This document shows, piece by piece, positions 17,341-35,877 of a DNA stretch of 36,212 nt. This stretch comes from Anaerolineales bacterium (GTDB lineage Bacteria > Chloroflexota > Anaerolineae > Anaerolineales > UBA11858). Below the pieces are notes generated by a model. It searched no databases. It worked only from the letters and a program-made list of their open reading frames with translations, and was not told the origin of the DNA. The position numbers and the translations under genes are program-made. The DNA is taken from contig JADHXE010000008.1 of NCBI GenBank assembly GCA_016783125.1, positions 1-36,212 on the forward strand. Direction: 5' to 3'. Within the stretch, counting starts at the first letter, position 1. Each line of letters begins with the position of its first letter.

Positions 17341-17369
17341 TTGACAAAACAACAACACTTTGATATAGT
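17341..17369 (+). promoter_or_regulatory. Sigma70-like promoter for the LacI-family gene
   Basis: TTGACA at 17341-17346, 17-bp spacer, TATAGT at 17364-17369. Confidence 0.75.
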
Positions 17370-17371
17370 AA

Positions 17372-17385
17372 TGCAAACGTTTGCA
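17372..17385. promoter_or_regulatory. LacI/GalR-type operator 1
   Basis: TGCAAACGTTTGCA, perfect palindrome with the central CG typical of LacI-family sites. Confidence 0.85.
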
Positions 17386-17410
17386 CACGCAAGTATTTTT
17401 TTCTCTGTTT

Positions 17411-17428
17411 GTGCAAACGTTTGCGCAC
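17411..17428. promoter_or_regulatory. LacI/GalR-type operator 2
   Basis: GTGCAAACGTTTGCGCAC, near-perfect palindrome; centre 40 bp from operator 1. Confidence 0.85.
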
Positions 17429-17451
17429 CTTTTGATTATGGAGGGCTTCTC

Positions 17452-18444
17452 GTGCCAATCACGATTAAGGATGTTGCTAAAAAAGCCAATGTTTCGCCAT
17501 CAACGGTATCACGCGCCTTAAACGATCATCCCCGTATCAGCACAGAAACCAAAAAACAGGTACAAGAGCTGGCCAAGAGTATGGGATATGTCCCCAGTCA
17601 GGCGGCGCGCAATTTGGTGACTCAGCGATCTGCAACAATCGGCGTGGCAGTTGCCGATTACCTGGACCCGTTTTACGTGAGCCTGCTGGCCAGCATCGAG
17701 GATGTTGCCCTGGCTAACAACTACGATCTATTTGTATCCAGTTTCTATCGAGATCGCCGGCGGGAAGAAAAACTATTCGATTCTTTTTACGAAAAACGAT
17801 TGGCTGGAATCATTGTCGCGGGATCATTAATCGATGAAGGATATTTATCTCAAGAAAATCGCTCCGTACCAGTGGTTTTGATAAATTGTTTCTCGTACCC
17901 ATTTTCTGTTTCAGCCGATAAATTAGCGGGGGCAAAAATGGCCATGGAATACCTGGTTGGGTTGGGACACCATCGGATAGCTTACGTCTCTCAGGGCAAG
18001 CCTTTGAACACCGAACTTCTACGTCTTCAAGGATATCGCTCTGTATTGCGCAAACACGATATCCCAATAGACGACTCTCTAATCGTGCCGGGAGATGGCG
18101 GTGTAATTGGCGGCATTAAAGCCGTATCCCGATTGCTGGATTTGCCAGAAAAACCAAGCGCTATTTTCTGTTTCAACGATATGACAGCTATTGGCGTGAT
18201 GAATGCCCTGCAAAAGCGTGGCTGTCAAGTGCCGCGTGATTGCTCTGTCGTGGGCTTTGATGACCTGGAGATTGCTACCTACTACCATCCTTCTCTAACA
18301 ACTATCCGGCAGCCCATTTACCGGCTCGGGTATAGGGCTACCGAAATGCTACTTGATCTCATTCGGAGCGATGGTGAAGTCGGTTCTGAGATTTTAGAAC
18401 CAGAATTGATTGTCCGAGATTCGACAGCTCGCGCCCAGGATTAG
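17452..18444 (+). CDS. LacI-family transcriptional regulator
   Basis: VPITIKDVAKKANVSPSTVSRALNDHPRISTETKKQV HTH and periplasmic-binding-like effector domain; GGAGGG RBS before GTG. Confidence 0.95.
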   Translation: MPITIKDVAKKANVSPSTVSRALNDHPRISTETKKQVQELAKSMGYVPSQAARNLVTQRSATIGVAVADYLDPFYVSLLASIEDVALANNYDLFVSSFYRDRRREEKLFDSFYEKRLAGIIVAGSLIDEGYLSQENRSVPVVLINCFSYPFSVSADKLAGAKMAMEYLVGLGHHRIAYVSQGKPLNTELLRLQGYRSVLRKHDIPIDDSLIVPGDGGVIGGIKAVSRLLDLPEKPSAIFCFNDMTAIGVMNALQKRGCQVPRDCSVVGFDDLEIATYYHPSLTTIRQPIYRLGYRATEMLLDLIRSDGEVGSEILEPELIVRDSTARAQD

Positions 18445-18551
18445 AGTACGAAGAAAGGAGGTGATACTATCGAAAAAGTCTAATATCCGTCACTGAATAC
18501 CGTAACGTAAAAACCCATTTAGATACATTATTTCCTACGGAGGAGTTTTCC

Positions 18552-20029
18552 ATGTACAACAAAAAGATGCTTTTCTTTTTTAGCAGCCTGATCATTCTGG
18601 TTGTACTTCTGGCTGCTTGCCAGCCGCAAACAGTCGTCGGACCGTTGTGGTCGAGAAAGAGGTTGTGGTCGAGAAAGAAGTGGAGGTCGTCAAAGAAGTA
18701 GAAGTGATCAAAGAGGTCGAAGTCGAAGTTCCGACTGGCGGCGAACTGGTCACCCTCGTTGCTCGCTGCCGGGCCAAGCCCCCCACAGAGGACTGGCGCT
18801 GCAACAACCTGCTCTTCGCTGTGGCCGAGGTCAATGCCGACCTGGAAGCCGCCGGCGATTCCCGCCGTGTGGTGGTCGAGACCATCCAGGACAACACCGA
18901 TTGGGGCGACATCATGCAGGAGTTTGCCCTGTCCTACGAAGATGACAAGGCGCCGGACATCCTGCTGACCGGCCACGAGTTCATCGGCACCGAGGCCGAG
19001 GCCGGCCGCATCATCCCCTTGGAGGATATGCTCGGCAATTACCCGGAATTCGACAATGTGATCGACGCGCTGTGGAATTCAGTCATGTACAAGGGCCAGC
19101 GCTGGGGTGTCCCCCAGGACACCGAAGCCCGGCCAGTCTACTGGGACAAGACGCTGCTGGCGCAGGTTCCGGGATGGGACGAGGCTCGCATGGCCGGATT
19201 GGCCGATGAGATCGCGGCTGGTAACTTCACCCTGGACGACATGCTAGAGACAGCCGAAGCAGCCGTAGCGGCCGGCGTTGTGGAGCCGGGCATGGGCTTC
19301 TGGATGCGGCCCAAGAACGGCCCCGATTTCACCGCCCTGTACTACGCCTACGGCGGCGAGACCATTGACGCCGATACCGGCAAGCTGGTCTTCGACACAG
19401 AGGCCGGCCTGAAGTACTACCAGTTCTTCGAGCGCGGCTTGACCGGCGACGGTGCACACAGCTTCCTGACCGCGGACTGGGGCGGCAGTTACCACCCCAG
19501 CGTCTCGGGCAGCGCGGTGCTGTTCTGGGGCGGCGGCGCCTGGCAGTGGGCCGAGTGGGCCTCTCAGTGGACCGCGGACAAGGGCGGTCAGGACTACCAG
19601 TTTGAAAACTGGGGCTACGGCTTGTACCCGGCTGCCCCGGGTGGTTCCCCGGTCACGCTGTCGCACCCGGTGGTTTACCTGGTCAGCGCCCAGAGCGAGC
19701 ATCCTGACCTGGCCCTGGCCCTGATCGCCAAAGCGACCACCGACGAGGCCAACACCCGCCACGCCATCAACAGCACCCACCTGGGTATCCTCAAGTCGCA
19801 GGCCGGATATGAGGCTTACACGCAGGACGTCTTCCTGTCCGACGTGCTCTACATGTTGGACTACACCACTTTCCTGCCCAACAACCCCAACTGGGGACCG
19901 TACTCGACGATCACCTACGAAGCTCTGGCAGCGGTGCAAACCGGCGACTTGACCGCCCAAGAGGCTGTTGATCTGGTCGTAGATGGACTTCAAAATGAGT
20001 TGGGTGATGAGATCATCATCCTGCCATGA
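18552..20029 (+). pseudogene. ABC transporter sugar-binding lipoprotein (family 1 SBP); signal peptide and mature region are in different frames
   Basis: MYNKKMLFFFSSLIILVVLLAACQPQ (lipobox) in one frame, then VVVEKEVVVEKEVEVVKEVEV...GGELVTLVARC in the frame of ORF 18617-20029. Confidence 0.85.
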
Positions 20030-21042
20030 ACGTTAAAAACAGGCTAGAGAGGGGGGGGACGCCCCCCCTCTCTCCTGCTACTCCAGAGCGGGAGACGTCC
20101 CCCATTGGGGCCAGATTGCGCTCGAAACTGGAAGCCTATGGTTTCTTGTCTCCAGCCGTCTTGTTGGTCACGCTCTTCTTTTTCATCCCGGTGGTCATTA
20201 TCTTCGTGCTCAGCCTTTCCGACCTGAAATCCTCGAACTTTGGCATGCTGCAATGGTGGCTGCCGGTTAACTGGAGCCTGGAGAATTACGCCAAGATCTT
20301 TGGCAATAAATTCTTCCCCAAAATTTTGGGCAACACTTTCTTTTACGTGGCAGTCACGCTGACCCTGTTCAATTTCAGCAGCGCACTGCTGATCGCCGTA
20401 CTCACCACCCACATCGACCGCCGCGCGGGCTTTTTCTTCCGCGTGCTGTGGCTCTTGCCCCGCCTGACCCCTTCGGTTATCTACATTATGATGTGGCAGC
20501 GCATGGCCTCGCGCGCCCCTCACGGCATCCTCAACCAGTTGCTCGTTCCCCTGGGAATAGGCACAGGGGGTGACTTGATCCAGGCCGCGCCCTGGTTCTT
20601 CGTCATCATTGTGAATGGAATGATCGGCGCCTCGTTTGGCATGGTGATCTTTACCTCGGCCATCGAGGCCATCCCCAGGGATTTTATGATGGCCTCCAAG
20701 GTAGACGGTGCCTCGACCTGGCAGACCATCCGCCACGTCATCCTGCCCTCGATCAAGTGGCCGATCCTGTTCGTGATCACCTACCAGACGCTCTCGCTGC
20801 TCACCTCCTTTGAGCAGATCATGCTGCTCACCGATGGCGGGCCGGGGTTGTACAAGACCGAGGTGTGGGCGCTGACAGCCTACCACCGGGCCTTATCCAA
20901 CTACTTTGGCAACAACCAGTGGGGCTATGGTTCGGCCTGGGCGGTGATCCTGGTGATCATCGGTGTGGGCGCGGCTGCTATCTATATGCGCGTGTTCAAG
21001 TTCGATGAACTGGTGCAAGAACCTAAGATCGACTTGCTGTAA
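20026..21042 (+). CDS. CUT1-type ABC transporter permease (MalF/UgpA-like)
   Basis: Multiple TM segments; EAA-like motif EAIPRDFMMASKVDGASTWQTIRHVILPSIKWPI. Confidence 0.95.
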   Translation: MNVKNRLERGGTPPLSPATPERETSPIGARLRSKLEAYGFLSPAVLLVTLFFFIPVVIIFVLSLSDLKSSNFGMLQWWLPVNWSLENYAKIFGNKFFPKILGNTFFYVAVTLTLFNFSSALLIAVLTTHIDRRAGFFFRVLWLLPRLTPSVIYIMMWQRMASRAPHGILNQLLVPLGIGTGGDLIQAAPWFFVIIVNGMIGASFGMVIFTSAIEAIPRDFMMASKVDGASTWQTIRHVILPSIKWPILFVITYQTLSLLTSFEQIMLLTDGGPGLYKTEVWALTAYHRALSNYFGNNQWGYGSAWAVILVIIGVGAAAIYMRVFKFDELVQEPKIDLL

Positions 21043-21057
21043 CGCACAAGGAGAAAT

Positions 21058-21903
21058 ATGATGACACTTCGACAAAGGATCATGGCAGTCATTCCCTACG
21101 TACTCCTGGTTCTCACCGTGCTGCCCATCGTCGTGGGCTATTTCTGGCTGGCGCTCAGTTCCTTCTCAGTCAGTACGGAAGGGCTGCGGTCAACAGGCTT
21201 CACCTTGAGCAACTGGAGTTTCTTGAGCGAGCCGCCCTTCGGCCGCGGCTATCCCAGCATCTGGAGGGTGACCTTCAACACCTTCGTGATCGCCATATCA
21301 ATGACTACCGCTGTGGTTATAGTTTCATCACTGGCCGGTTATGCGCTGTCACGCCTAAACTTCCCAGGGCGCAAGTCGTTCCTCTCGCTGACGCTGATAC
21401 TGCATGCCTTTCCCAGTGTGACCCTGCTGATCGGCATCTACTTCGTGCTGCGCACCCTCAAACTATACAACACGCTTACAGGCGTAGGCCTGGTGATGAT
21501 CGGTTTCGAACTGCCCTTCGGCATCTGGCTGATGAAGGGCTTTTTCGACAACGTCTCCTGGGACATGGAACGGGCCGCCCTGATCGACGGCGCCTCCCGC
21601 CTGCGGGTTTGGGGGGAGATCATCCTGCCCACCATCAAGCCGGGCATTGCCGCATTATCCATCTTCGCTTTCATCTCCGGCTGGAACGCCTGGCTGATCC
21701 CCAAAACCTTTACCATCGGCGCTGGTCAAAACGCGACCCTGTCTGTCTTTTTGAATAATTTTAGGGGCGATACAGTGGCTGTCCAATGGGGAGCGGTCAC
21801 CGCGGTGGGGCTGTTCCAGCTCATCCCGGTGGCTATTTTCTTCATCTTCACCCAGGACCTGCTGTTGAGCATCTATGCCGGCGGGGCCAAAGGTGGCACG
21901 TGA
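21058..21903 (+). CDS. CUT1-type ABC transporter permease (MalG/UgpE-like)
   Basis: SWDMERAALIDGASRLRVWGEIILPTIKPGIAALSIF EAA motif. Confidence 0.95.
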   Translation: MMTLRQRIMAVIPYVLLVLTVLPIVVGYFWLALSSFSVSTEGLRSTGFTLSNWSFLSEPPFGRGYPSIWRVTFNTFVIAISMTTAVVIVSSLAGYALSRLNFPGRKSFLSLTLILHAFPSVTLLIGIYFVLRTLKLYNTLTGVGLVMIGFELPFGIWLMKGFFDNVSWDMERAALIDGASRLRVWGEIILPTIKPGIAALSIFAFISGWNAWLIPKTFTIGAGQNATLSVFLNNFRGDTVAVQWGAVTAVGLFQLIPVAIFFIFTQDLLLSIYAGGAKGGT

Positions 21904-21905
21904 CT

Positions 21906-21959
21906 CGTATTGCGTATTCCGTACAGCGTATAGCGCAATGATACGGAATACGCAATACG
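21906..21959. repeat. Inverted repeat with 18-bp perfect arms
   Basis: CGTATTGCGTATTCCGTA (21906-21923) and TACGGAATACGCAATACG (21942-21959), 18-nt spacer. Confidence 0.95.
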
Positions 21960-21977
21960 CTATATGAGGAGTGAACC

Positions 21978-23057
21978 ATGAAAGTAAAACTCGAAAACCT
22001 GAGCAAACGTTGGGGGAAGGTCGTGGGCGCCGACCGCATCGACCTGGAGATCACCGACGGCGAGTTCGTGGCCTTCCTGGGGCCTTCGGGCTGCGGGAAA
22101 ACCACAACATTGTTGATGGTCGCTGGAATTTACAAGCCCACAGAAGGCAGCATTCGTTTCGACGAACGCGTCGTCAACTACGTAGCGCCCAAAGACCGCA
22201 ACATCGGTATGGTTTTCCAGAGCTACGCCCTCTACCCTCACATGACCGTATTCCAGAACATCAGCTATCCCCTCAAATTGCAGAAAACATCCAAGGAGGA
22301 AATGAAACAGCGGGCGCAGAAAGTGGCCGATATGATGGACATCGGACACTTGATGGATCGCAAGCCAGCCCAGCTCTCCGGCGGACAGCAGCAACGCGTG
22401 GCTCTGGGCCGGGCGCTGGTCAAAGAGCCTAAACTGCTGCTGTTCGACGAACCGCTTTCCAACCTGGACGCTCGCCTGCGCCTCTCCATGCGCGGCGAAA
22501 TCAAACGGCTTCAGGTAGAGCTAAGAGTCACATCAATTTACGTCACCCACGACCAGGTGGAGGCCATGACTATGGCCGACCGCGTGGCAGTGATGAAAGA
22601 TGGCAAACTGCAAGCCTACAGCCCGCCAGATGAACTGTATGATCAACCGCGCACCCTCTTTGTAGCCAGCTTTGTGGGTAACCCGCCGATGAATCTCATC
22701 GAGGTCGATGTTACCCGCGAAAACGGTGACTACCACGCCCGTGCAGATGGGATCGATTTGATCGTCCCTGCTGAGCGGGGTGAAAAGGCGGCTGGCAAAG
22801 GCCGGGTCATCATGGGCATCCGCCCTGAAGACGTAACCATCAGCGAGCAGGAGCAGGAGGGTGTCTCTGGCGAAATCTATGTCGTTGAGCCGCTGGGCCG
22901 CGACGACCTGATTGACGTGCGCGTTGGAGAGACCAGCATTCGCGTGTTGGCCGACCCCGCCTTGCGGCTGAAAATGGGTGAAAATACCGCGCTCGACTTC
23001 AACACCAGCAAGGCGCAGTTCTTCGACCCGGCAACAGAGCAGTCTTTGCTCTGGTAA
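21978..23057 (+). CDS. Sugar ABC transporter ATP-binding protein (UgpC/MsmX-like)
   Basis: GPSGCGKTT Walker [17 protein letters not shown] signature, [13 protein letters not shown]-terminal TOBE-like domain. Confidence 0.95.
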
Positions 23058-23216
23058 CAACGAATCCGGCATGAAGAGGCTCGCCGTCATCGCTTGTATG
23101 CGTACCGCGAGGTTTATCGCTCTGGCGGGCTGCCTCCCATCCGTTCGAAGACGACTTTGGCTCTCTCCGAGCAGGTCTTGGAGAGAGTTGTTTATTGCGA
23201 GTTGGAAACGGAAACG

Positions 23217-24056
23217 ATGACAACTCACCGTGACTCTTTGCGCAATTTTGACAGCGCCCGGCGCAAGGCGTTCGTCCAGCGCATCCTGGCTTTCATCACG
23301 CGGCAGCCGCTGGATCTGCTGCCTTTCGAACAGGTACGCCAGCAACTGCGCCTTCGTGATCGCCACTTCCGAGACTTGCAAGAGATACCGCTGAATCAAA
23401 TCGTGGGCAGTGTGGGGCGCTACCGGGATTTTACGCGCACATTTCTGCCTCGCAGTGACGGGTTGCGAGAACGCTGGGCTGCCGTCGAAGATCGTGTGAA
23501 AGCAGGCGGCCTGCCTCCTGTGGAGCTTTACAAGGTGGGTGAGGCTTACTTCGTGCGCGATGGCAACCACCGCATCTCTGTCGCCCGTGCCCAGAACGTG
23601 CCTGACATCGAGGCTTTCGTGTGGGAATATCCCAGTCTGGTGCCCCTCAGTCCTGATGACGATCTAGATGACCTGCTCATCAAGCAAGGCTACGTGGCGT
23701 TCCTGGAAAAAACGCGCCTTAATAGGCTGCGTCCAAACCAGCACATCGAATTGACCGCCCCGGGACGGTATCGTGATTTGCTCGAACATATCGCCGTCCA
23801 CCGCTATTATCTGGGCCGGGAGTATAATCGGGAAACTTCAAATGAAGAGGCGGTTACCGGTTGGTACGATAACGTCTACCAGCCCATTATTCGTGCGATC
23901 TGCAAACAGGGCATTCTAAAACAGTTTCTGGGACGCACCGAGGCAGACCTGTACATTTGGGTTTCGCGCTGGCAGCATGAGTTGAGCGAACGCTACGGTA
24001 AACCCATCGACGCTGAAGATGCTGTCATTAATTTTTACAGAACGAGGGAAACATGA
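23217..24056 (+). CDS. ParB/Srx-like nuclease-fold protein
   Basis: GGLPPVELYKVGEAYFVRDGNHRISVARAQ matches the ParB-like GxxRxxA core. Confidence 0.7.
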   Translation: MTTHRDSLRNFDSARRKAFVQRILAFITRQPLDLLPFEQVRQQLRLRDRHFRDLQEIPLNQIVGSVGRYRDFTRTFLPRSDGLRERWAAVEDRVKAGGLPPVELYKVGEAYFVRDGNHRISVARAQNVPDIEAFVWEYPSLVPLSPDDDLDDLLIKQGYVAFLEKTRLNRLRPNQHIELTAPGRYRDLLEHIAVHRYYLGREYNRETSNEEAVTGWYDNVYQPIIRAICKQGILKQFLGRTEADLYIWVSRWQHELSERYGKPIDAEDAVINFYRTRET

Positions 24057-24946
24057 CTTTGCCCACCAAGAACAAGATTGACATTATGATGATCGGCCAC
24101 TTCGCCAGGGACATACTGGTGGTAGATGGCCTTGCTAAGACCTCCTCCGGGGGTGGCGTCTACTACGGCAGCGTGACCTTGCGTCACCTGGGGTTGGATG
24201 TGGCTGTGGTCACACGCCTGCACTCAGGCGATTTTTCACGTATCGAGGAACTAAAGCTTGCTGGAGTGCAGCTCTTCGCTACTCCTGCACCAGAGACCTC
24301 GGGGATCGAAAATATTTACGACTCGGCCGACATGGAGCGGCGCGTTTGCAAAACTCTGGGGTTTGCCGGGCCTTTTCAAATCGCCGATATTCCGGATGTC
24401 GCAGCCCGCATCTACGCGATTGTCCCCATCATCGCCGGCGAGGTGGACCTGCCGCTGCTCAAATCCCTGGCCAGTCGAGGCCCGGTCGCACTCGATGTGC
24501 AGGGGTTCGTGCGCGTCCGTGATAATGGCAGTCTCGTTTTCCGTGAGTGGGTCGAGATGGAAGAGGGCCTCTCGCACGTAACCTATCTAAAAGTGGACCG
24601 CGCCGAGGCCGAGTTGCTCACTGGCCAGACTGATTTGCGATTGGCAGCCCACCGATTGGCTGATTTTGGCCCCCGCGAGATTGTCGTCACCCAGTCATCG
24701 GGTGTGACCGTCTTCGCTGAGGGGCACATCTACCAGGCCCCTTTCACCCCACATTCCCTCGATGGTCGAACCGGCAGAGGAGACACTTGCTTTGCCACCT
24801 ACCTGGGAAAAAGATTGAGCACCTCCCCACAAGAGGCCTGCCGCTTTGCGGCCGCCGTCACCACCCTGAAGCAAGAGCAGCCTGGCCCCTGGAATGGCAA
24901 TCTGGCTGCCGTAGAAGAATTGCTGGCAGGCGTCAAACTGGAGTAA
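24053..24946 (+). CDS. PfkB-family carbohydrate kinase (DKG kinase or inositol kinase candidate)
   Basis: C-terminal GRTGRGDTCFATYLGKRL anion-hole/catalytic Asp motif; SGGGVYYGSVTLRHLG N-terminal glycine motif. Confidence 0.85.
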   Translation: MTLPTKNKIDIMMIGHFARDILVVDGLAKTSSGGGVYYGSVTLRHLGLDVAVVTRLHSGDFSRIEELKLAGVQLFATPAPETSGIENIYDSADMERRVCKTLGFAGPFQIADIPDVAARIYAIVPIIAGEVDLPLLKSLASRGPVALDVQGFVRVRDNGSLVFREWVEMEEGLSHVTYLKVDRAEAELLTGQTDLRLAAHRLADFGPREIVVTQSSGVTVFAEGHIYQAPFTPHSLDGRTGRGDTCFATYLGKRLSTSPQEACRFAAAVTTLKQEQPGPWNGNLAAVEELLAGVKLE

Positions 24947-24953
24947 ATGAATT

Positions 24954-25748
24954 GTGTCATACCAATTGCCTCATCACACCCAACTCATAGCCCACCGGGG
25001 GAATTCTGGCCCCGCTCCTGAGAATACACGCTTAGCGATCCAACAGGCAATCGCCCTAGAAGTCGATATGATTGAAGTGGATGTTCATATCAGTCAGGAT
25101 GGAGTCCCGGTTTTAATCCACCACTCGAGACTTGAACACACGACCAACGGGCAGGGGCATGTGATTGAGCACACGTTATCGGAACTCAAATTACTGGACG
25201 CCGGTGATTGGAAAGCCCCCGAATTCGCAGGGGAACGTATCCTGACACTGTGCGATGTTTTAGAGCTGACCCGGAATCGGATACCATTAAACCTGGATTT
25301 GAAAACAGAGCGCGCTATTCCAGCCACACTAAAAGCTGTTCGAGAGATGAATGTCTTGAACGAGGTCGTCATTAGCGGATGTACGCAAGACTGTGTAAAA
25401 ATGATCCGTTCGCGAGAACCGCGCCTGACTGTTCTCTTGAATCTCGATGAGGTGTTGGAACAATTGGCTCTCACGGGGCCGGCAGCGATATTCCGATCAC
25501 GTTGCCTGAACGTGGCCGAGCAGACTGGCGCAGCCGGAATCAATATTGCCCACGTTTTTGTCAATCGCCCCCTTGTCCAACAAGCTCATCGAAAGGGATT
25601 GTCTGTTTGGGTCTGGACAGTGGATGACGAAGAGCGCGTACAGGAACTGTTGGGAATGGGAGTTGACTCGATCACAACCAATTGGCCTGAAAAGATGATG
25701 CCAATCATAAAAGGTTTGACAGCGGGCGTGGAACGAGGGCAACAATGA
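24954..25748 (+). CDS. Glycerophosphodiester phosphodiesterase (GDPD)
   Basis: LIAHRGNSGPAPENTRLAIQQAIALEVDMIEVDVHISQDGVPVLIHH and VWVWTVDDEERVQELLGMGVDSITTNWPE. Confidence 0.95.
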   Translation: MSYQLPHHTQLIAHRGNSGPAPENTRLAIQQAIALEVDMIEVDVHISQDGVPVLIHHSRLEHTTNGQGHVIEHTLSELKLLDAGDWKAPEFAGERILTLCDVLELTRNRIPLNLDLKTERAIPATLKAVREMNVLNEVVISGCTQDCVKMIRSREPRLTVLLNLDEVLEQLALTGPAAIFRSRCLNVAEQTGAAGINIAHVFVNRPLVQQAHRKGLSVWVWTVDDEERVQELLGMGVDSITTNWPEKMMPIIKGLTAGVERGQQ

Positions 25749-27235
25749 CAGCCAAATGGATGCGAGCCCTCTCAGCCCAGTTCGAACGTGTCTGTCAGGC
25801 CTACCCCGGCGAGCGTCTGATGCTATTGTTGGATATTGACGGCACCATCATTGACATGCGTCACATGATTTTGGCCGTGCTCTATGCGTATGATCGTACC
25901 CACGCCACCAGTTATTTCGAAAGATTGCAATTCGCGGATATTAACGTGCACGAGAACCAGGTGGATGCGCTGTTCACTGAATTGAACGTGCCCGCCGAGG
26001 CGCAGGCCGACATCTTGGCCTGGTACCTGGAGCAACGCTGGACCCCTGAAGCTATCCGCGAAATGCATCATCCGTTTCGAGGGGTGCTGGATGTTGTCCG
26101 TTGGTTTCAGCTTCAGACCAATACTACCGTTGGTCTGGTGACTGGTCGTCCAGAAACACTGCGGGAAAACACCCTGCGTTCGTTGAACCGGCTTGGTAAG
26201 CCCTACCGGGTACAGTTTGTCGACGATCTGCTCTATATGAATCCGGGCAAATGGGAGGAAAAGGTTCCCGATATCAAAGTAGCAGGGATCAATCATTTCA
26301 GGGAGGCTGGCTACCACGTATTCGCCTTCATCGATAACGAGCCAGCCAATCTAAAAACGCTGGCCACCGCTGACCCGGAGAGAGATGTGCTTCTTTTACA
26401 CGCCAACACGGTTTTCGAATCTAAAAGAACACGCCTGCCGCGCGGCACGGTGCGCGGCAAAGAGTATCGCTTGGCGGAGCTCATCCCGGATGAGAAGGCC
26501 CTGCCCGCTCACGTCCAGTTAGCCTGGCACGGGGTGAATGATAAGGCCAATTTGCGCCAGTTTCTGGCTTCTGACGTGCGATGGGCAGAGGTGGATGCCA
26601 TGCTTGAACCCACCTGCCGCTGGGTAATTTTACGGCACGACTCGTTTGCGGCAACCCTACTAGAGACTAATGAGCAATGGTTTATGCTGGCCGACGTGTT
26701 GGACAAAATCACAGCCTTTGGCCGGGCGATTAAGATCGATTTTAAGGCTGGTGGCATGCTGCTGGATCGAGTGCTGGAGATGGTCGCTGAGAGAGAGTTG
26801 ACCGACGACAGACTGTGGTTCAATGCCAACATTGAGATATTAATGGAAAGCGGCTTTAAACACCTTTGTCTCAGGCATCCAGAAGCCATCATCCAATGCC
26901 CGATAGACTTTCTGGCGCCTCTGATCGTAGCCGCGCCGGAGCAGGCGCATAGAACCCTGCAAATGCTGAATGATTGGGGCATCAACCGTTTTTCGATTAG
27001 CTGGGAGCGGCCAAATCTGAGGGAACTCTTCGATCAGATGGATCTTTGGAATTATCAGGTGAATATCTACGGCGTCCCTGATCTGGAAACTTTCCTCCAG
27101 GCAGTGCTTTTGCTGCCGCGCTCGGTGACATCGGATTTTAATTTCCCACAGTGGCACTATTACGGTCACGGGTCGGGCAAAGGCGGCGTCCACCTCGCCT
27201 ACCGGCAGACGAAGAAAGGCGATCAATATTTATAA
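25745..27235 (+). CDS. Two-domain protein: N-terminal HAD-like phosphatase, C-terminal FAM151/Menorin (DUF2181)-like domain
   Basis: HAD motifs LLLDIDGTI, LVTGRP, FIDNEPAN; C-terminal AWHGVNDKANLRQFLASDVRWAEVDA resembles the Menorin/FAM151 start. Confidence 0.65.
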   Translation: MTAKWMRALSAQFERVCQAYPGERLMLLLDIDGTIIDMRHMILAVLYAYDRTHATSYFERLQFADINVHENQVDALFTELNVPAEAQADILAWYLEQRWTPEAIREMHHPFRGVLDVVRWFQLQTNTTVGLVTGRPETLRENTLRSLNRLGKPYRVQFVDDLLYMNPGKWEEKVPDIKVAGINHFREAGYHVFAFIDNEPANLKTLATADPERDVLLLHANTVFESKRTRLPRGTVRGKEYRLAELIPDEKALPAHVQLAWHGVNDKANLRQFLASDVRWAEVDAMLEPTCRWVILRHDSFAATLLETNEQWFMLADVLDKITAFGRAIKIDFKAGGMLLDRVLEMVAERELTDDRLWFNANIEILMESGFKHLCLRHPEAIIQCPIDFLAPLIVAAPEQAHRTLQMLNDWGINRFSISWERPNLRELFDQMDLWNYQVNIYGVPDLETFLQAVLLLPRSVTSDFNFPQWHYYGHGSGKGGVHLAYRQTKKGDQYL

Positions 27236-27246
27236 AAAGGAAACCT

Positions 27247-28122
27247 ATGCCTACAACAAAATCCCCTCTTTTAGTTTCACCCCAAACGGATTCAGGGGAA
27301 TACCTTCGCATCAGTCCTGAATCAGCAGGCTGGGAGTTCTTGAACCTCTCTGCCCGGAAAATGAGACAAGGCGAAAAATGGTCTTTCCAAACCGATGAAA
27401 ATGAATTGGCTCTGGTTGTGCTGGGTGGAGTTTGCCATGTGCGCTCTAGCCGTGGAGATTGGAAAAACATAGGCCGCAGACCAAACGTCTTTAGCGGCAT
27501 GCCCTATACGCTCTATCTGCCGCGCCACACCGAGTTCAGTGTGGAAGCCGCCAGTGAAAATCCGGATATTGCCTGCGGCTGGGTCCCCACGGATGAAGAT
27601 CACCCCCCGCAATTGGTCACCCCCGATGATGTAGACACCGAAATCCGCGGTGGGGATAATTTCACCCGTCAAATCAACGGCATAATTCCGCCCGGATTTG
27701 ACTGTCACCGTTTAGTGGTTGTCGAAGTTTATACCCCCTCTGGCAATTGGAGTTCCTATCCTGGGCACAAACATGACGTCCATCGCGAAGATGCTGAGGG
27801 CAATATCCTCGAGGCTGATCTGGAAGAAATCTACTTCTACAAAATAGACAAGCCCGAAGGCTACGCCTATCAACGGTTATACAACGACGACAAAAGTCTG
27901 GACGAATTGATCTTGGCTCGCAATAGCCACGCCGTCTTGGTCCCTGAAGGCTATCACCCCGTCGTCTCTGCCCCGGGCTATACCACCTATTACTTGAATT
28001 TTCTGGCTGGCACAGCCCAGGTTTTGACCGCCACCGACGATCCGGAGTATGCTTGGGTCAAAGATACTTGGAAGGCAAGAGACCCGCGCCTGCCCGTTGT
28101 CAGCATGGCAATGGAAAAATAG
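27247..28122 (+). CDS. iolB: 5-deoxy-glucuronate isomerase
   Basis: YPGHKHD...LEEIYFYKIDKPEGYAYQRLYNDD...VLVPEGYHPVVSAPGYTTYYLNFLAG. Confidence 0.95.
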   Translation: MPTTKSPLLVSPQTDSGEYLRISPESAGWEFLNLSARKMRQGEKWSFQTDENELALVVLGGVCHVRSSRGDWKNIGRRPNVFSGMPYTLYLPRHTEFSVEAASENPDIACGWVPTDEDHPPQLVTPDDVDTEIRGGDNFTRQINGIIPPGFDCHRLVVVEVYTPSGNWSSYPGHKHDVHREDAEGNILEADLEEIYFYKIDKPEGYAYQRLYNDDKSLDELILARNSHAVLVPEGYHPVVSAPGYTTYYLNFLAGTAQVLTATDDPEYAWVKDTWKARDPRLPVVSMAMEK

Positions 28123-28145: not shown

Positions 28146-29231
28146 ATGTCTACCTACAAAAGTCCCCTCCACGAGACCATTTCCACTACGGTCACCGATT
28201 TCTGGAACGACTCCTGCGCGATCGAGGAGTTAACTTACGCCATCGAACACGGTGCTGTTGGCGCTACCAGCAACCCTACTATCGTCTTAAGTGTTGTCCG
28301 ACAGGAAATGCACCTATGGCGCGAGCGTATCTTTGAGGTCATCGCTGAAAACCCGACTTGGTCAGAGGTTGAAGTCACCTGGAAAGTTTCTGAAGAAGTC
28401 GCTGTCAAGGGCGCTGAATTGTTGCTGCCTGTTTTTGAGCGTGAGGGCGGCAAAAAGGGACGTCTCTCCATTCAGACCAACCCAGCCAATTACGGCAACG
28501 CGACCGCCATCGTCGAGCAGGCGCGCTATTTTAATGAGTTGGCGCCTAATATGCAGATTAAAATCGCGGCAACATCAGCAGGCATCCAAGCCATCGAAGA
28601 TGCCACTTATCACGGAGCCAGCATCAATGCCACGGTAAGCTTCACTGTTCCGCAAGCTATCGCTATCGCCGAGGCTGTAGAACGCGGCCTGGATCGCCGC
28701 GCTGCTGATGGACTGGATATATCCAAGATGAGTCCAGCCTGCACCATTATGGTGGGGCGCGCCGACGATTGGATGCAGGTGGTGACGAATCGAGACAATA
28801 TCATCCTCAACCCGGCTCATATCCATTGGGCTGGTGTCGCCATCTTCAAGAAAGCCTATCAACTCTACCAAGAGCGCGGCTATCGGGCACGCTTGTTGGC
28901 TGCGGCTTACCGTAACCACTTGCACTGGTCAGAATTCATCGGCGGCGACGTTATTCTTACTATCCCCTATAACTGGCAAAAACGCTTCAACGCCTCCGAT
29001 GTGGGAGTTAAAGAACGTATGGACAACCCTGTTGATTCTGCCATCATCCAAGATTTGTATGACCATACCCCAGATTTCCGCATGGCTTACGATGAAGACG
29101 GGATGAGCGTGGACGAATTCGACACCTATGGAGCAACGGTACGCACTTTACGGGGCTTCATCAAGTCCTATCACGACCTGCAAGCCATGATCCGCGAAGA
29201 GTTCATGCTGCCCAACCCGGATGTGAAGTAG
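28146..29231 (+). CDS. Transaldolase-family protein
   Basis: GATSNPTIVL, LSIQTNPANYGN, IKIAATSAGIQAIE (Schiff-base lysine region). Confidence 0.9.
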   Translation: MSTYKSPLHETISTTVTDFWNDSCAIEELTYAIEHGAVGATSNPTIVLSVVRQEMHLWRERIFEVIAENPTWSEVEVTWKVSEEVAVKGAELLLPVFEREGGKKGRLSIQTNPANYGNATAIVEQARYFNELAPNMQIKIAATSAGIQAIEDATYHGASINATVSFTVPQAIAIAEAVERGLDRRAADGLDISKMSPACTIMVGRADDWMQVVTNRDNIILNPAHIHWAGVAIFKKAYQLYQERGYRARLLAAAYRNHLHWSEFIGGDVILTIPYNWQKRFNASDVGVKERMDNPVDSAIIQDLYDHTPDFRMAYDEDGMSVDEFDTYGATVRTLRGFIKSYHDLQAMIREEFMLPNPDVK

Positions 29232-29302: not shown

Positions 29303-29418
29303 GTCCAGTCTCTGAGCGGAAGTGAAGCGATAGCGGAACTGTAGTCGAAGAGCGGCTTTACTAGATAACCCGTCCTTCGACTACGCTCCCTATCGTCCGC
29401 TCCGCTCAGGAACTGTCA
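29303..29418. repeat. Dispersed palindromic element, copy 1
   Basis: Ends CAGTCTCTGAGCGGA...TCCGCTCAGGAACTG; internal GTAGTCGAAGAGCGGCTT...CCGTCCTTCGACTAC. Confidence 0.8.
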
Positions 29419-29469: not shown

Positions 29470-29577
29470 GGACTTACGCATTTTTATAATCCTTGTCCCA
29501 ATGCTCTGCGTTGGGATACTGTGGACAAATCGCAACGCAGAGCATTGCGATTAGAAAAAGGTGTTTTGTGTAAGTCC
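29470..29577. mobile_element. MITE-like element
   Basis: Terminal inverted repeats GGACTTACGCA / TGTGTAAGTCC (10/11) and inner 15-bp inverted repeat CAATGCTCTGCGTTG / CAACGCAGAGCATTG; no ORF. Confidence 0.7.
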
Positions 29578-29601: not shown

Positions 29602-31461
29602 ATGAGCACAATTCGCCTCACCACCGCGCAAGCCATTATCCGCTTCCTGCAAAACCAGTATGTCGAGCGTGATGGTCGCAAAAACCCCTTCTTCGCCGGA
29701 TGCTGGGGCATTTTCGGTCATGGCAACATCGCCGGCATCGGGCAAGCCTTGCAGCAAAATCCCGATTTTCGCTATTTCCAATCCCGCAACGAACAAGCTA
29801 TGGTGCATACCGCCGCGGCTTACGCAAAGGTGAAAAATCGCCTGCAAACATTTGCCTGCACATCTTCGATTGGTCCCGGCGCTACGAACATGGTTACTGC
29901 CGCAGCCGGGGCAACGATCAACCGTTTGCCTGTATTGCTCTTACCCGGTGACCTCTTCGCCCGCCGCAATGTAGCCCCCGTATTGCAGCAACTGGAAATG
30001 CCCTCCTCGCAAGATATTTCCGTCAATGATGCCTTCAAGCCGGTTTCGCGCTATTGGGATCGCATCAACCGTCCCGAGCAAATTATCTACGCGTTGCCCG
30101 AAGCGATGCGCGTACTTACTTCTCAGGCAGACACCGGCGCGGTGACGCTGGCTCTGCCACAGGATGTGCAGGCTGAGGCATTTGATTATCCTGAGGAGTT
30201 ATTCGCGCGCCGGGTGTGGTTGATTCCGCGTCCCAGACCGGATATTACCCTTTTGCAGCGTGCCGTTAAACTGATCAAATCCAGCAAAAAACCGCTCATT
30301 ATCGCCGGTGGCGGCGTTATCTACGCTGAAGCCACCGAGGCATTAAAGAAATTTGCCGAGCAAACCGGTATTCCCGTTGCTGAAACGCAGGCGGGGAAGG
30401 GCGCAATCTCTTATGATCACCCTCTGGCGCTGGGCGCAATGGGCGCAACCGGTACGCCGGGAGCTTTTGAACTGGCGCGTGATGCCGACCTGATTATCGG
30501 CATTGGCACCCGCTATAGCGACTTCACCACCGCGTCCAAGACAGCTTTCCAAAACCCTGGTGTCAAGTTCATCAACATCAATATAGCCGAATTTGATGCT
30601 TTCAAGCAGGCAGCCCTTCCATTGGTGGCGGATGCGCTGGTTACTCTCGAAGAGTTAGGCATCGCTTTGCAGGGCTACCGCACCGACGAGGGCTACCAGG
30701 CCCGCATTGCTAAGTTCAATCAGGCGTGGGATGCCATCGTTGAAAAAGCCTACAATCTGGATCACGGTGTGCCCATCAGCCAGAGCGAAGTGATCGGCGT
30801 GATTAACGAGCGTTCCCGCCCTCAAGATGTGGTGGTCGGCGCTGCCGGCAGCTTGCCTGGGGATTTGCACAAACTCTGGCGGACGCGCGACCCCAAAGGC
30901 TATCATCTGGAATATGGCTATTCTTGCATGGGTTACGAAATCGCCGGTGGGCTGGGCGTCAAGATGGCAGACCCTGATCGGGAAGTGTATATAATGGTAG
31001 GAGATGGTTCTTACCTGATGCTGTCTCAGGAAATTGTCACGGCGGTACAAGAGGGGATCAAGATCAATATCATCTTGCTCAACAATCACGGCTACGCCAG
31101 CATTGGCAGTCTATCCGAAGCTCTGGGCAGCGGCGGCTTTGGCACCCGCTACTTATCTCGCAACGCAGCAACAGACCAGTTGGATGGGCAGCGCCTGCCC
31201 GTAGATTTCGCCGCCAACGCCCGCAGTCTGGGCGCGCACGTCATCGAAGCCAGCGACAAGGCCAGTCTGGAATCTGCCATCAAAGAAGCCAAAAAGCAGA
31301 CCCAAACGACCGTCATCGTTATAGAGACTGACCGCGAAGAACGAGTGCCTGGATATTCCTGGTGGGATGTCCCCATTGCGGAAATATCTACTAAAGAAAG
31401 CGTGCTGGAAAAATACGCAGCCTATGAAAAAGCGATCAAGAAAGAAAGGCACCATCTATAA
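29602..31461 (+). CDS. iolD: 3D-(3,5/4)-trihydroxycyclohexane-1,2-dione hydrolase
   Basis: ThDP enzyme with FFAGCWGIFGHGNIAGIGQAL, GDGSYLMLSQEIVTAVQEGIKINIILLNNHGYASIGSLS. Confidence 0.97.
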   Translation: MSTIRLTTAQAIIRFLQNQYVERDGRKNPFFAGCWGIFGHGNIAGIGQALQQNPDFRYFQSRNEQAMVHTAAAYAKVKNRLQTFACTSSIGPGATNMVTAAAGATINRLPVLLLPGDLFARRNVAPVLQQLEMPSSQDISVNDAFKPVSRYWDRINRPEQIIYALPEAMRVLTSQADTGAVTLALPQDVQAEAFDYPEELFARRVWLIPRPRPDITLLQRAVKLIKSSKKPLIIAGGGVIYAEATEALKKFAEQTGIPVAETQAGKGAISYDHPLALGAMGATGTPGAFELARDADLIIGIGTRYSDFTTASKTAFQNPGVKFININIAEFDAFKQAALPLVADALVTLEELGIALQGYRTDEGYQARIAKFNQAWDAIVEKAYNLDHGVPISQSEVIGVINERSRPQDVVVGAAGSLPGDLHKLWRTRDPKGYHLEYGYSCMGYEIAGGLGVKMADPDREVYIMVGDGSYLMLSQEIVTAVQEGIKINIILLNNHGYASIGSLSEALGSGGFGTRYLSRNAATDQLDGQRLPVDFAANARSLGAHVIEASDKASLESAIKEAKKQTQTTVIVIETDREERVPGYSWWDVPIAEISTKESVLEKYAAYEKAIKKERHHL

Positions 31462-31567: not shown

Positions 31568-31682
31568 CAGTTCCTGAGCGGAAGGCGACTGCACTTGAGC
31601 CTGTAGTCGAAGGACGGGGTTCGCGAGAAGCCGCTCTTCGACTGCGCCTTCGCTATCGCTACGGCTCCGCTCAGAGACTGTG
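31568..31682. repeat. Dispersed palindromic element, copy 2 (inverted relative to copy 1)
   Basis: Ends CAGTTCCTGAGCGG...CCGCTCAGAGACTG; its reverse complement aligns with 29303-29418. Confidence 0.8.
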
Positions 31683-31832: not shown

Positions 31833-33305
31833 ATGGCAAAGAAACTACTGAACTACATCAACGGCGCGTGGTCAGAATCCACTGCCACGGAATATTTGGA
31901 TGTACTAAACCCGGCTACAGGAGAAACGCTTGGTCAAGTGCCGCTCTCCCCGATAAAAGACGTGGATACCGCAGTGCAAGCCGCATCCGCCGCCTTCAAC
32001 GGTTGGCGGCGCACGCCAGCAACCACGCGGATTCAATATTTGTTTAAACTTAAAACCCTGATGGATGAGAGATTTGAAGATTTCTCCCGCATGATTGTGC
32101 AGGAGAATGGAAAAACCCTGGGTGAGGCTCGTGGTGAGATGCGCCGAGCAATTGAAAATGTGGAAACAGCTTGCGGTATCCCATCCCTCATGCAAGGGTA
32201 CCTGAACGAGGATATTGCCCGCGGTATCGACGAAATGATGATTCGCCAACCATTGGGAGTGGTGACCATTATTGCGCCCTTCAATTTCCCCGGCATGATT
32301 CCATTTTGGTTCCTGCCTTATGCCATCGCCACAGGCAACACGGTAATCATTAAGCCCTCCGAGCGTTGCCCCATGACCATGCAACTCGTCGTGGAGATTA
32401 TGGAAGAACTTGACCTGCCAAAAGGCGTCGTAAATCTGGTTCATGGCGGGGCTGAAGCCGTCAATGCACTGCTCGATCATCCGACCGTCAAGGCAATCAG
32501 CTTTGTTGGCTCCACACCTGTTGCGCTGCATGTTTACAGTCGCGGGGCTGCCAACGGAAAACGCGTCCAGGCACAGGGCGGAGCTAAGAATCCGCTGGTG
32601 ATTATGCCTGATGCCGATGTAGAAATAACCACCAGCATTATTACCGACAGCGTTTTTGGCAATGCCGGTCAGCGCTGTCTTGCAGCCGCCAATATTATCA
32701 CCGTGGGCGAAGCTCAAAACATATTTGCCCCTGTACTAAAAGAAGCCGCCCTTTCTCGTGTCGTCGGATATGGACTGGATGAGAATACCCAAATGGGACC
32801 GGTGATTAGCCCACAAAGTAAAACTCGGATTGAAAGCCTCATCAATAAGGGCATGGAAGAAGGGGCTGAACTTGTGCTGGATGGTCGTCAGGCAACGATT
32901 TCAGGATATGAAAAGGGAAACTTTCTGAATCCCACAATTTTGAGTAATGTCTCGCCGAAAGGCGAACTCGCTCAGACAGAAATCTTTGGGCCCGTTATGA
33001 GCATGATGCACGCCGAGACTCTGGATGACGCCATCAAGATCGTCAACGGCGGCAACTACGGGAACATGGCTTGCATCTTTACCAACAGCGGCGGCGCAGC
33101 GCGACGTTTCCGCTATGAAGCGACGGCTGGCAATATCGGTGTCAATATTGGTGTGGCTGCTCCAATGGCATTCTTCCCCTTCAGCGGATGGAAAGATAGC
33201 TTCTTTGGCACATTACACGGACAGGGTCACCATGCAGTCGAGTTCTATACCCAGACCAAAGTCGTTATTGAACGCTGGCTCAAAGAATGGTCTAGGCAAT
33301 TTTAG
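31833..33305 (+). CDS. iolA: (Methyl)malonate-semialdehyde dehydrogenase (CoA-acylating)
   Basis: [13 protein letters not shown]...[45 protein letters not shown] catalytic Cys region. Confidence 0.95.
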
Positions 33306-33354
33306 ATAGAGAGAGATAGAGTATAGAGAGATAGAGATAGAGAGGGCAGCGGAG

Positions 33355-33699
33355 ATGAGTTTTAAATTTGAGTACTTGGATGTTTGGAAGCGGAGTATTG
33401 ACTTCGCTGATACGATGTTTGACATTGCTGATAGGCTGCCTCAGAAGTATCAGTTTTCGCTCGGAGAGCAGTTACGCCGCGCTGCATTGAGCATTCCCAC
33501 GAATATTGCCGAGGGTACTGGCCGTGACGGCGTCAAAGAAAGCAGGTATTTTTACCGTATTGCCAAAGGCTCTACTTACGAAGTGGTCAGCTTATTGACA
33601 ATGTTTTATAAACGTCAGTTTTTGTCCCAAACAAACCTTGACCGGCATTACACCGAAGCCAACGAAATCGCCGCTATGCTCACCGGCCTCCAGCGCTAA
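33355..33699 (+). CDS. Four-helix-bundle protein (S23 / 23S rRNA-intervening-sequence protein family)
   Basis: DVWKRSIDFADTMFDIADRLPQKYQFSLGEQLRRAALSIPTNIAEGTGRDGVKESRYFYRIAKGSTYEV. Confidence 0.95.
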   Translation: MSFKFEYLDVWKRSIDFADTMFDIADRLPQKYQFSLGEQLRRAALSIPTNIAEGTGRDGVKESRYFYRIAKGSTYEVVSLLTMFYKRQFLSQTNLDRHYTEANEIAAMLTGLQR

Positions 33700-33743
33700 C
33701 GTTCTATCTCTACACTCTATCTCTATCTTTCCCGGAGGTTCCT

Positions 33744-34655
33744 ATGATTACGATCGCAAATGCCCCCTGTTCGTGGGGTGTACTCGAATTTGACCTGGAT
33801 GGCGAGTCTGCTGGTTTTGAACAAGTATTAGATGAAATGCAAGCGACTGGTTACGATGGTACCGAATTGGGGGATTGGGATTTCATGCCCACCGACCCCG
33901 TGGCACTCAAGGATGAGTTGGATGCCCGTAAACTGGAGCTGCTGGCTGCGTTTGCGCCTGTAGATTTATCCGATCCCGAGGCTCATACTTCTGGCGCAGA
34001 AGTTGCCGTGCGCACGGCCAAGCTGCTGGCTGCCGTAGCTAAGAATCCTTTTATTGTGTTGGCCGATGAAAACGGAAAAAACACAACCCGCACGCAACAT
34101 GCCGGTCGGATTAAACCCGAACATGGATTAACGGATGAACAATGGGAAACCTTTGGTCAAGGTGCAGAACGCGTGGCTCGTGACGTATATGATCAAACCG
34201 GCGTGCGCACTGTTTTTCATCATCACTGTGCGGGATTTGTAGAAACGCCTGCTGAAGTCGAGAAATTGCTTTCAATGACCGATCCGGATGTGCTTGGCCT
34301 GTGCTTTGATGCAGGACACTATATGTTTGGCGGCGGCGACCCGGTAGCAGGGTTGCGCAAACACGCCGACCGGATTTGGCATGTACATTTCAAAGATTGC
34401 CATCCTGAGATTGCAGCCCAAGCGCGCACCGAGTCGTGGGACTACTTTGAGTCTGTGCGCAAGGGAATCTTCTGCGAGCTTGGCTTGGGAGCGGTAGATT
34501 TCCCCGCGCTGAAAGCCATTCTTAATGAACTGAACTACGATGGTTGGATTGTAGTTGAACAAGATGTTTTGCCTGGCATGGGTAACCCCAAAGACAGCGC
34601 CCAGCGCAACCGAGATTATCTGGAATCGATTGGCTTTGAAAAGCCTTCTACATAA
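33744..34655 (+). CDS. iolE: Inosose (2-keto-myo-inositol) dehydratase, TIM-barrel family
   Basis: ITIANAPCSWGVLEFDL...VFHHHCAGFVETPAEVEKLL...GLCFDAGHYMFGGGDPV...RIWHVHFKDC. Confidence 0.9.
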   Translation: MITIANAPCSWGVLEFDLDGESAGFEQVLDEMQATGYDGTELGDWDFMPTDPVALKDELDARKLELLAAFAPVDLSDPEAHTSGAEVAVRTAKLLAAVAKNPFIVLADENGKNTTRTQHAGRIKPEHGLTDEQWETFGQGAERVARDVYDQTGVRTVFHHHCAGFVETPAEVEKLLSMTDPDVLGLCFDAGHYMFGGGDPVAGLRKHADRIWHVHFKDCHPEIAAQARTESWDYFESVRKGIFCELGLGAVDFPALKAILNELNYDGWIVVEQDVLPGMGNPKDSAQRNRDYLESIGFEKPST

Positions 34656-34851: not shown

Positions 34852-35877
34852 ATGATGTCTGAGAAAAAGATGATAACTTTTGGCGTTATCGGTGCTGGAC
34901 GGATTGGCAAAATCCACGCCGAGAATCTGGCTACTCGTATCCCTGGAGTGCAGGTCATCTCTATTGCGGATATTACGCTGGAAGCCGCCCAAGAAACTGC
35001 TGCCCACCTACGCGTCCCCACTTCGACTGCTGATTATCACGATATTCTGGCAGACCCGAACATCGACGCGGTGGCTATTTGCTCGTCGACAGATACTCAT
35101 GCCCAAATCATCATCGAAGCCGCAGAGGCTGGCAAGCATATCTTCTGTGAGAAACCCATCGATCATGATTTAGCAAAAATCGACGCTGCGCTGGCCGCAG
35201 TTGAGAAAGCGGGCGTAAAACTACAAATTGGCTTCAATCGACGTTTTGATCCCAACTTCCGCAAAGTGCGTGAAATGATCGCTGCCAATAAAGTTGGCAC
35301 CCCGCATATTCTGCGTATTACCAGCCGGGACCCTGCGCCCCCGCCTGTTGAATATATCAAAGTTTCTGGCGGTATCTTCCTCGATATGACCATCCACGAT
35401 TTTGATATGGCTCGCTATTTAATGGGCAGCGAAGTGACCGAGATCTACGCCGCTGGCGGCGTGATGGTTGATCCTGCCATTGGCGAGGCGGGCGACATCG
35501 ATACCGCAATTATCACCTTACGCTTTGAAAATAGCGCTATCGGTACGATTGATAACAGTCGCAAAGCCGTCTATGGCTATGACCAACGCGTGGAAGTCTT
35601 TGGTTCCGGCGGCATGGTAGCTACTGGCAACAACACACCAGATTCACATGTCTACAGTAACGCCGATGGCGTACAATCGGCGCAGCCGTTGTATTTCTTC
35701 CTGGAGCGCTACGCAGAATCTTTCACTCAAGAAATGTGTGAGTTTGTGGAGAGTATTCAAAATGATACAGCCCCTCCAGTTATCGGCATGGATGGTCGTA
35801 TACCCGTCGTCATGGGCATGGCGGCCCTAAAATCCTATCAAGAAAACCGCCCTGTGAAGTTGGTTGAGGTTGCATAG
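34852..35877 (+). CDS. iolG: Inositol 2-dehydrogenase
   Basis: GFO/IDH/MocA family: FGVIGAGRIGKIHAENLA, HIFCEKPIDHDL, GGIFLDMTIHDFDMARYLMG; iol context. Confidence 0.93.
   Translation: MMSEKKMITFGVIGAGRIGKIHAENLATRIPGVQVISIADITLEAAQETAAHLRVPTSTADYHDILADPNIDAVAICSSTDTHAQIIIEAAEAGKHIFCEKPIDHDLAKIDAALAAVEKAGVKLQIGFNRRFDPNFRKVREMIAANKVGTPHILRITSRDPAPPPVEYIKVSGGIFLDMTIHDFDMARYLMGSEVTEIYAAGGVMVDPAIGEAGDIDTAIITLRFENSAIGTIDNSRKAVYGYDQRVEVFGSGGMVATGNNTPDSHVYSNADGVQSAQPLYFFLERYAESFTQEMCEFVESIQNDTAPPVIGMDGRIPVVMGMAALKSYQENRPVKLVEVA

What the first reader, a model, noticed from the sequence alone, without database searches (positions are those of the whole stretch)
28146..29231. Transaldolase-family enzyme at the position expected for the IolJ aldolase
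It sits between iolB and iolD; no class II aldolase (IolJ) is visible in the window. The protein keeps TSNPTI and the IKIAATSAG lysine region of Schiff-base transaldolases. It could cleave 2-deoxy-5-keto-gluconate 6-phosphate to DHAP and malonate semialdehyde, a class I replacement for IolJ.
Basis: partly seen in the sequence, partly recalled or inferred. Interest (0 to 1): 0.66.

Follow-up and report, generated by a model that had tools for sequence, protein, structure and literature searches.

The report
Transaldolase-like aldolase in inositol breakdown
A gene annotated only as 'transaldolase family' very probably encodes the missing carbon-carbon-cleaving enzyme of inositol breakdown in many Chloroflexota and some other bacteria, and it appears to replace two standard enzymes (a kinase and an aldolase) at once.

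Summary
Window 28146-29231 encodes a 361-aa transaldolase/FSA-family protein between iolB and iolD. All Schiff-base catalytic residues are present. It is no ordinary transaldolase: it falls far below every curated cut-off, and all 63 clade members carry Gln where transaldolases carry catalytic Glu, as fructose-6-phosphate aldolase does.

The gene is repeatedly adjacent to true iolB, iolD and/or mmsA. It therefore sits between the enzyme that makes 2-deoxy-5-keto-gluconate (DKG) and the one that uses malonate semialdehyde.

Among 102 iolD-bearing genomes of the phylum, the gene and the DKG kinase IolC never co-occur (27 vs 40, overlap 0; two have sub-cutoff IolC-like kinases on other contigs). 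Its genomes also lack DUF2090, nearly always lack class II aldolases, and lack the iol-linked LacD/DeoC aldolases that accompany IolC. In sister genomes it occupies iolC's exact operon slot. The simplest reading is a kinase-free route: DKG is cleaved unphosphorylated to a dihydroxyacetone unit plus malonate semialdehyde.

No activity has been measured. I rate it a new variant of a known pathway.

The parts
28146..29231 (+). Transaldolase-family enzyme (TAL), proposed DKG aldolase
   Evidence: PF00923 131 bits; below all NCBIfam transaldolase/FSA cut-offs; AF2 pLDDT 94.3, transaldolase fold
28560..28562 (+). Lys139 codon, predicted Schiff-base lysine (TalB K132, FSA K85)
   Evidence: alignment, conserved in all 63 loci
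28473..28475 (+). Gln110 codon, at the position of TalB Glu96 / FSA Gln59
   Evidence: Gln in all 63 clade members and in seven more distant relatives; the genome's own classical transaldolase has Glu
28749..28760 (+). Met202 to Arg205 (TalB F178 and R181 positions)
   Evidence: Met in 62 of 63, Arg in all
28911..28913 (+). Arg256 (TalB R228), preceded by Ala254 where TalB has Ser226
   Evidence: conserved in the clade
27247..28122 (+). iolB, 5-deoxy-glucuronate isomerase (makes DKG)
   Evidence: TIGR04378 325 bits vs cut-off 205
29602..31461 (+). iolD, THcHDO hydrolase
   Evidence: TIGR04377 936 bits vs cut-off 715
31833..33305 (+). mmsA/iolA, (methyl)malonate semialdehyde dehydrogenase (uses malonate semialdehyde)
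   Evidence: TIGR01722 552 bits vs cut-off 448
33744..34655 (+). iolE-like inosose dehydratase
   Evidence: TIGR04379 212 bits, below cut-off 290
34852..35877 (+). iolG, inositol 2-dehydrogenase
   Evidence: TIGR04380 481 bits vs cut-off 355
24053..24946 (+). weak PfkB-family kinase in the upstream module; not IolC
   Evidence: PfkB 32 bits; not among the genome's IolC-model matches at E<=0.001; not seen in the TAL operons of L015, L022, L115

Best explanation
The protein is a class I aldolase on a transaldolase scaffold that carries out the carbon-carbon cleavage step of myo-inositol catabolism. Lys139 forms a Schiff base with the C5 ketone of 2-deoxy-5-keto-D-gluconate (DKG), the product of IolB. 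The C3-C4 bond breaks, malonate semialdehyde leaves for MmsA, and the dihydroxyacetone unit is released by hydrolysis or passed to an aldehyde phosphate. Most likely the substrate is unphosphorylated DKG, so the enzyme replaces both the kinase IolC and the aldolase IolJ. Shown by computation: fold, catalytic residues, Gln signature, genomic linkage, mutual exclusion with IolC and its aldolases. Inferred: substrate, phosphorylation state, products.
For: (1) Catalytic set D22, N43, K139, T163, R205, R256 conserved; Gln110 in all 63 members. PMC13259622 reports, citing Stellmacher et al., that swapping the residues holding this water interconverts FSA and TalB activities. (2) Linkage: 37 of 63 loci (one pair is the same contig) have an iol gene directly adjacent on the same strand; 42 have iolB, iolD or mmsA within 5 kb. 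Triads iolB-TAL-mmsA (L131, L077, L132) and mmsA-TAL-iolD-iolB (L079, L080, L084, L087) bracket exactly the DKG-to-malonate-semialdehyde step. Most of the 32-39%-identity IolBs tested are true equivalogs. (3) Of 102 iolD+ genomes: TAL only 27, IolC only 40, both 0, neither 35; Fisher 9e-8; 19 vs 25 genera, none shared, p 1e-5. (4) Slot swap: G351 (single contig) LacI-iolB-TAL-iolD-iolE-iolG vs G401 (same family) LacI-iolB-iolC-iolD-iolE-iolG. (5) iol-type LacD/DeoC aldolases in 32/40 IolC+ vs 4/27 TAL+ genomes (strong hits 22 vs 0); DUF2090 absent from all TAL+ genomes tested; class II aldolase in 3 of 27 TAL+iolD+ genomes and none in G351. (6) Transaldolases use a DHA, not DHAP, donor and make 3S,4R bonds (PMC3962226); by my own stereochemical reading DKG has that configuration at C4/C3, and its carboxylate lies where the Arg pair would bind.
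Against: L014 and L018 carry iolB-TAL-iolC-iolD and L011 has TAL beside IolC. They nest among kinase-less TALs, so a common substrate could be DKG-6-phosphate with other kinases standing in for IolC. 35 iolD+ genomes have neither gene, so lack of IolC alone is weak evidence. No DHA kinase gene lies beside any TAL, Dak1 is not enriched (14/27 vs 27/40) and is absent from the window genome and G351. FSA's Tyr131 is replaced by Met. About a third of clade loci show no iol neighbour.
Confidence: 0.55

Rival explanations
1. One reading: TAL is a class I DKG-6-phosphate aldolase giving DHAP and malonate semialdehyde. It replaces IolJ only, and another kinase phosphorylates DKG where IolC is missing.
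For: iolB-TAL-iolC-iolD operons L014 and L018, with no DUF2090 or class II aldolase in those genomes. Every TAL+ genome examined still has several PfkB kinases; the window genome has an IolC-like kinase at 177 bits on contig C303.
Against: Strict mutual exclusion of TAL and IolC in 102 iolD+ genomes is the opposite of what a partner kinase predicts. Anaerolineaceae L015/L022 genomes have no IolC match better than 45 bits. The C303 kinase sits in its own LacI/ABC cluster. Transaldolase-type enzymes bind phosphate at the acceptor end, not at the DHA end.
Confidence: 0.3
2. TAL is an ordinary transaldolase, or an aldolase for another sugar, that merely happens to lie in inositol clusters.
For: Transaldolase fold; about a third of clade loci show no iol gene in the DNA held, and 15 of 42 TAL+ genomes lack iolD.
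Against: The window genome has a separate classical transaldolase on C117 with Glu at the key position. TAL is far below transaldolase cut-offs. Linkage recurs across Chloroflexota, an Actinomycetota plasmid and Hydrogenedentes. TAL and iolD co-occur with Fisher p 2e-8.
Confidence: 0.08
3. TAL is a true DKG transaldolase: it moves the DHA unit from DKG to glyceraldehyde-3-phosphate, giving fructose-6-phosphate plus malonate semialdehyde, much as sulfofructose transaldolase does. This is a sub-case of the best explanation (its probability is part of the 0.55).
For: No DHA kinase gene is linked and Dak1 is absent from G000 and G351; this route needs no kinase at all. The phosphate-binding Arg pair is kept.
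Against: Gln110 (not Glu) is the aldolase-type residue; Ser226 of the phosphate site is replaced by Ala.
Confidence: 0.2

Closest known systems
Fructose-6-phosphate aldolase (FSA/TalC, EcFsaA)
   Same: Transaldolase-family class I aldolase; Lys, Asp, Asn, Thr and the Gln59-type residue align
   Different: 361 vs about 220 aa; no Tyr131 (Met202); scores 38 bits against the FSA equivalog, cut-off 246; linked to inositol genes
Classical transaldolase (TalB; Neisseria and Corynebacterium Tal)
   Same: Fold (TM-score 0.80 to 7bbx/3clm/3r5e), size, Schiff-base Lys, Arg181/Arg228 equivalents
   Different: Glu96 to Gln, Phe178 to Met, Ser226 to Ala; 19-23% structural identity; below equivalog cut-offs
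IolJ, class II DKG-6-phosphate aldolase
   Same: Pathway position (retro-aldol to malonate semialdehyde)
   Different: Different family and mechanism class (metal vs Schiff base); needs the IolC product
IolC-DUF2090 fusions (PMC9007349) and LacD/DeoC-type iol aldolases
   Same: Class I alternatives to IolJ in inositol clusters
   Different: DHAP-type aldolases that occur with IolC; the TAL occurs instead of IolC
Sulfofructose transaldolase (SF-TAL, e.g. BmSF-TAL 8bc3)
   Same: Transaldolase-family enzyme recruited as the cleavage step of a catabolic pathway; acceptor end carries a non-phosphate acid (from general knowledge)
   Different: Short FSA-like subfamily; different substrate; only a weak partial sequence match to it

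Membership tests
Transaldolase/FSA superfamily (PF00923) | profile match over gathering score and fold | tested here: met
   131 bits vs 27; AF2 model best matches all transaldolases
Transaldolase/FSA superfamily (PF00923) | Schiff-base Lys with Asp, Asn, Thr | tested here: met
   K139, D22, N43, T163 near-invariant in 63 loci
Classical transaldolase (EC 2.2.1.2) | equivalog score | tested here: not met
   best 104.8 bits (subfamily model, cut-off 367); TIGR00874 59.7/396, TIGR00876 71/234
Classical transaldolase (EC 2.2.1.2) | catalytic Glu96 | tested here: not met
   Gln110 in all members
Fructose-6-phosphate aldolase | Gln59-type residue | tested here: met
   Gln110
Fructose-6-phosphate aldolase | Tyr131 and equivalog score | tested here: not met
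   Met202; 38.3 bits vs 245.95
IolJ (class II DKG-6-phosphate aldolase) | PF01116 metal-dependent aldolase | tested here: not met
   only PF00923 matches
IolC-DUF2090 / LacD aldolases | PF09863 or PF01791 domain | tested here: not met
   no match
DKG (or DKG-6-phosphate) aldolase by function | cleaves the substrate in vitro; needed for growth on inositol | not testable with these tools
   needs enzyme assay and deletion
IolC-dependent inositol pathway | IolC over TIGR04382 cut-off in genome | tested here: not met
   best 176.8 bits vs 300 in a genome 88% complete

The most novel reading that the evidence does not exclude
A kinase-free branch of inositol catabolism in which a transaldolase-type enzyme passes the dihydroxyacetone unit of DKG straight onto glyceraldehyde-3-phosphate (fructose-6-phosphate + malonate semialdehyde), so that no ATP-dependent step and no free dihydroxyacetone occur.
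Probability: 0.2. Interest if true: 0.75.

Novelty: new variant of a known kind. Interest (0 to 1): 0.6.

Why it matters
The DKG-6-phosphate aldolase step is a documented gap: PMC6741124 could not find iolJ in inositol growers such as Gaiella occulta and Solirubrobacter soli, and PMC9007349 found IolJ in none and DUF2090 in 7 of 15 inositol users it examined. Surveys take IolC as a core gene (PMC9430895), so genomes that use a kinase-free route would be miscalled. The prediction names one gene, one substrate and a simple test, and would give enzymologists a natural transaldolase-to-aldolase conversion.

Tried and rejected
IolJ elsewhere in the genome: two class II aldolases exist (C248 beside FAD-oxidoreductase/GCV_T and aminotransferase genes; C133), with no inositol context; not favoured but not excluded. 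PfkB gene at 24053 as a hidden IolC: rejected, it does not match the IolC model and was not seen in the other TAL operons. DHA kinase as the partner gene: no linkage, no enrichment. DUF2090: absent. Single-sequence AlphaFold gave a poor model (pLDDT 42) and was discarded for the 15-row alignment. Literature searches found no inositol paper naming a transaldolase for this step, within an open-access library only.

Full report
What is there. The ORF 28146-29231 (+) is a 361-residue member of the transaldolase/FSA superfamily (PF00923, 131 bits). It lies 23 bp after a true iolB and 370 bp before a true iolD, with mmsA, an iolE-like gene and iolG following. The window lies in a fragmented 4.3 Mb genome, 88% complete. 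A related contig named as Chloroflexi (L020) is identical in the TAL protein to one in its phylum sample (L131), so the phylum is taken to be Chloroflexota.

It is not an ordinary transaldolase. Every NCBIfam transaldolase or FSA model matches far below its cut-off. The genome has a separate classical transaldolase (contig C117) and a short FSA/transaldolase homologue (C240). In an alignment of 63 clade members with TalB and FsaA, D22, N43, K139, T163, R205 and R256 are conserved. The transaldolase acid/base Glu96 is Gln in all, as in FSA; Phe178 is Met in 62 of 63 and Ser226 is Ala. PMC13259622 describes Gln59 as part of the FSA water network and reports that swapping these residues interconverts aldolase and transaldolase activity. 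AlphaFold on 15 homologues gave pLDDT 94.3, and Foldseek's best PDB matches are transaldolases at TM 0.80.

Linkage. Related genes (49-72% identity) were found in Chloroflexota, Actinomycetota, Hydrogenedentes and Bacillota and on a Clavibacter plasmid beside a full iol operon. Of 63 clade loci (L020 and L131 are the same contig), 37 have an iol gene directly adjacent on the same strand, most often iolB (23), iolD (13) or mmsA (12). Units such as iolB-TAL-mmsA and mmsA-TAL-iolD-iolB recur. The more diverged IolB neighbours tested are genuine equivalogs, except one at 189 bits against the 205 cut-off. This places the enzyme between DKG (made by IolB) and malonate semialdehyde (used by MmsA).

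Which substrate. I sampled 400 genomes of the phylum for TAL, IolD and IolC. Of 102 iolD+ genomes, 27 have TAL, 40 have IolC, none has both over the cut-off, 35 have neither (Fisher 9e-8). By genus: 19 and 25, none shared. Two TAL+ genomes (G327, G209) have sub-cutoff IolC-like kinases on contigs separate from TAL; in G327 a LacD/DeoC-type aldolase lies beside it. In sister genomes of one family, G351 (a single contig) has LacI-iolB-TAL-iolD-iolE-iolG and G401 has LacI-iolB-iolC-iolD-iolE-iolG: the kinase and the TAL take the same slot.

IolC clusters often carry a DeoC/LacD class I aldolase. Such aldolases occur in 32 of 40 IolC+ genomes and 4 of 27 TAL+ genomes (strong hits 22 and 0). DUF2090 was absent from every TAL+ genome tested, and class II aldolases are rare in them. 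TAL thus replaces a kinase-plus-aldolase pair, not an aldolase alone. That fits transaldolase chemistry, whose donor is dihydroxyacetone (PMC3962226), and, by my own reading of the stereochemistry, the configuration of DKG.

Against this, L014 and L018 have iolB-TAL-iolC-iolD, L011 has TAL beside IolC, and these nest among kinase-less TALs. Free dihydroxyacetone would need an outlet: Dak1 kinase is absent from the window genome and G351 and not enriched in TAL+ genomes. Either another kinase acts, or the DHA unit is transferred directly. 35 iolD+ genomes have neither enzyme, so other solutions exist. The genomes are mostly draft MAGs, so single absences are weak; the pattern is what counts.

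Known context. IolJ-less inositol users are a recorded puzzle (PMC6741124). DUF2090 fused to IolC was proposed as one class I solution (PMC9007349). I found no paper in the open-access library naming a transaldolase for this step. The role in inositol cleavage is, in my estimate, about 85% likely; cleavage of the unphosphorylated acid about 55%.

Noticed in passing
window 17341-27235: Upstream co-directional module: LacI regulator, sugar ABC transporter, an unknown 320-aa protein, weak PfkB kinase, glycerophosphodiester phosphodiesterase, unknown 496-aa protein. A Thermus plasmid (L138) and L083 also have GDPD and ABC genes beside iol genes, suggesting scavenging of glycerophosphoinositol.
   Followed up: partly
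L183:15262-16410, L184:10915-11892, L186:14000-15079, L194, L196, L197: IolC-containing inositol clusters of Chloroflexota carry unfused LacD/DeoC (PF01791) class I aldolases, likely unrecognised DKG-6-phosphate aldolases.
   Followed up: partly
L022:88-7846 (also L015; similar gene sizes in L115): A divergent cluster (ABC transporter, RpiR regulator, two alkaline-phosphatase-superfamily enzymes, HAD phosphatase) sits next to the iolB-TAL-iolD operon, perhaps for uptake of inositol phosphates.
   Followed up: no
L085:7630-9561, L129:1-1164, L090:7610-10279: IolD-like TPP enzymes at 31-33% identity in TAL clusters; the L085 one scores 312 bits against a cut-off of 715, possibly a parallel pathway for another cyclitol.
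   Followed up: partly
window 33305-33731: A 114-aa ORF (33355-33699) resembling four-helix-bundle 23S rRNA-intervening-sequence proteins lies between mmsA and iolE, flanked by 36-nt imperfect inverted repeats.
   Followed up: no
window 29306-29358 and 31628-31680; 29496-29550: Imperfect inverted repeats (53 nt, 83% complementary) in the gaps before and after iolD, and a separate strong hairpin in the TAL-iolD gap; look like intergenic mobile hairpin elements.
   Followed up: no
L136:8806-10026 (Shinella plasmid): A distant (29%) relative of the TAL lies in a TPP-dehydrogenase cluster near a triose-phosphate isomerase and a class II aldolase; substrate unknown.
   Followed up: no
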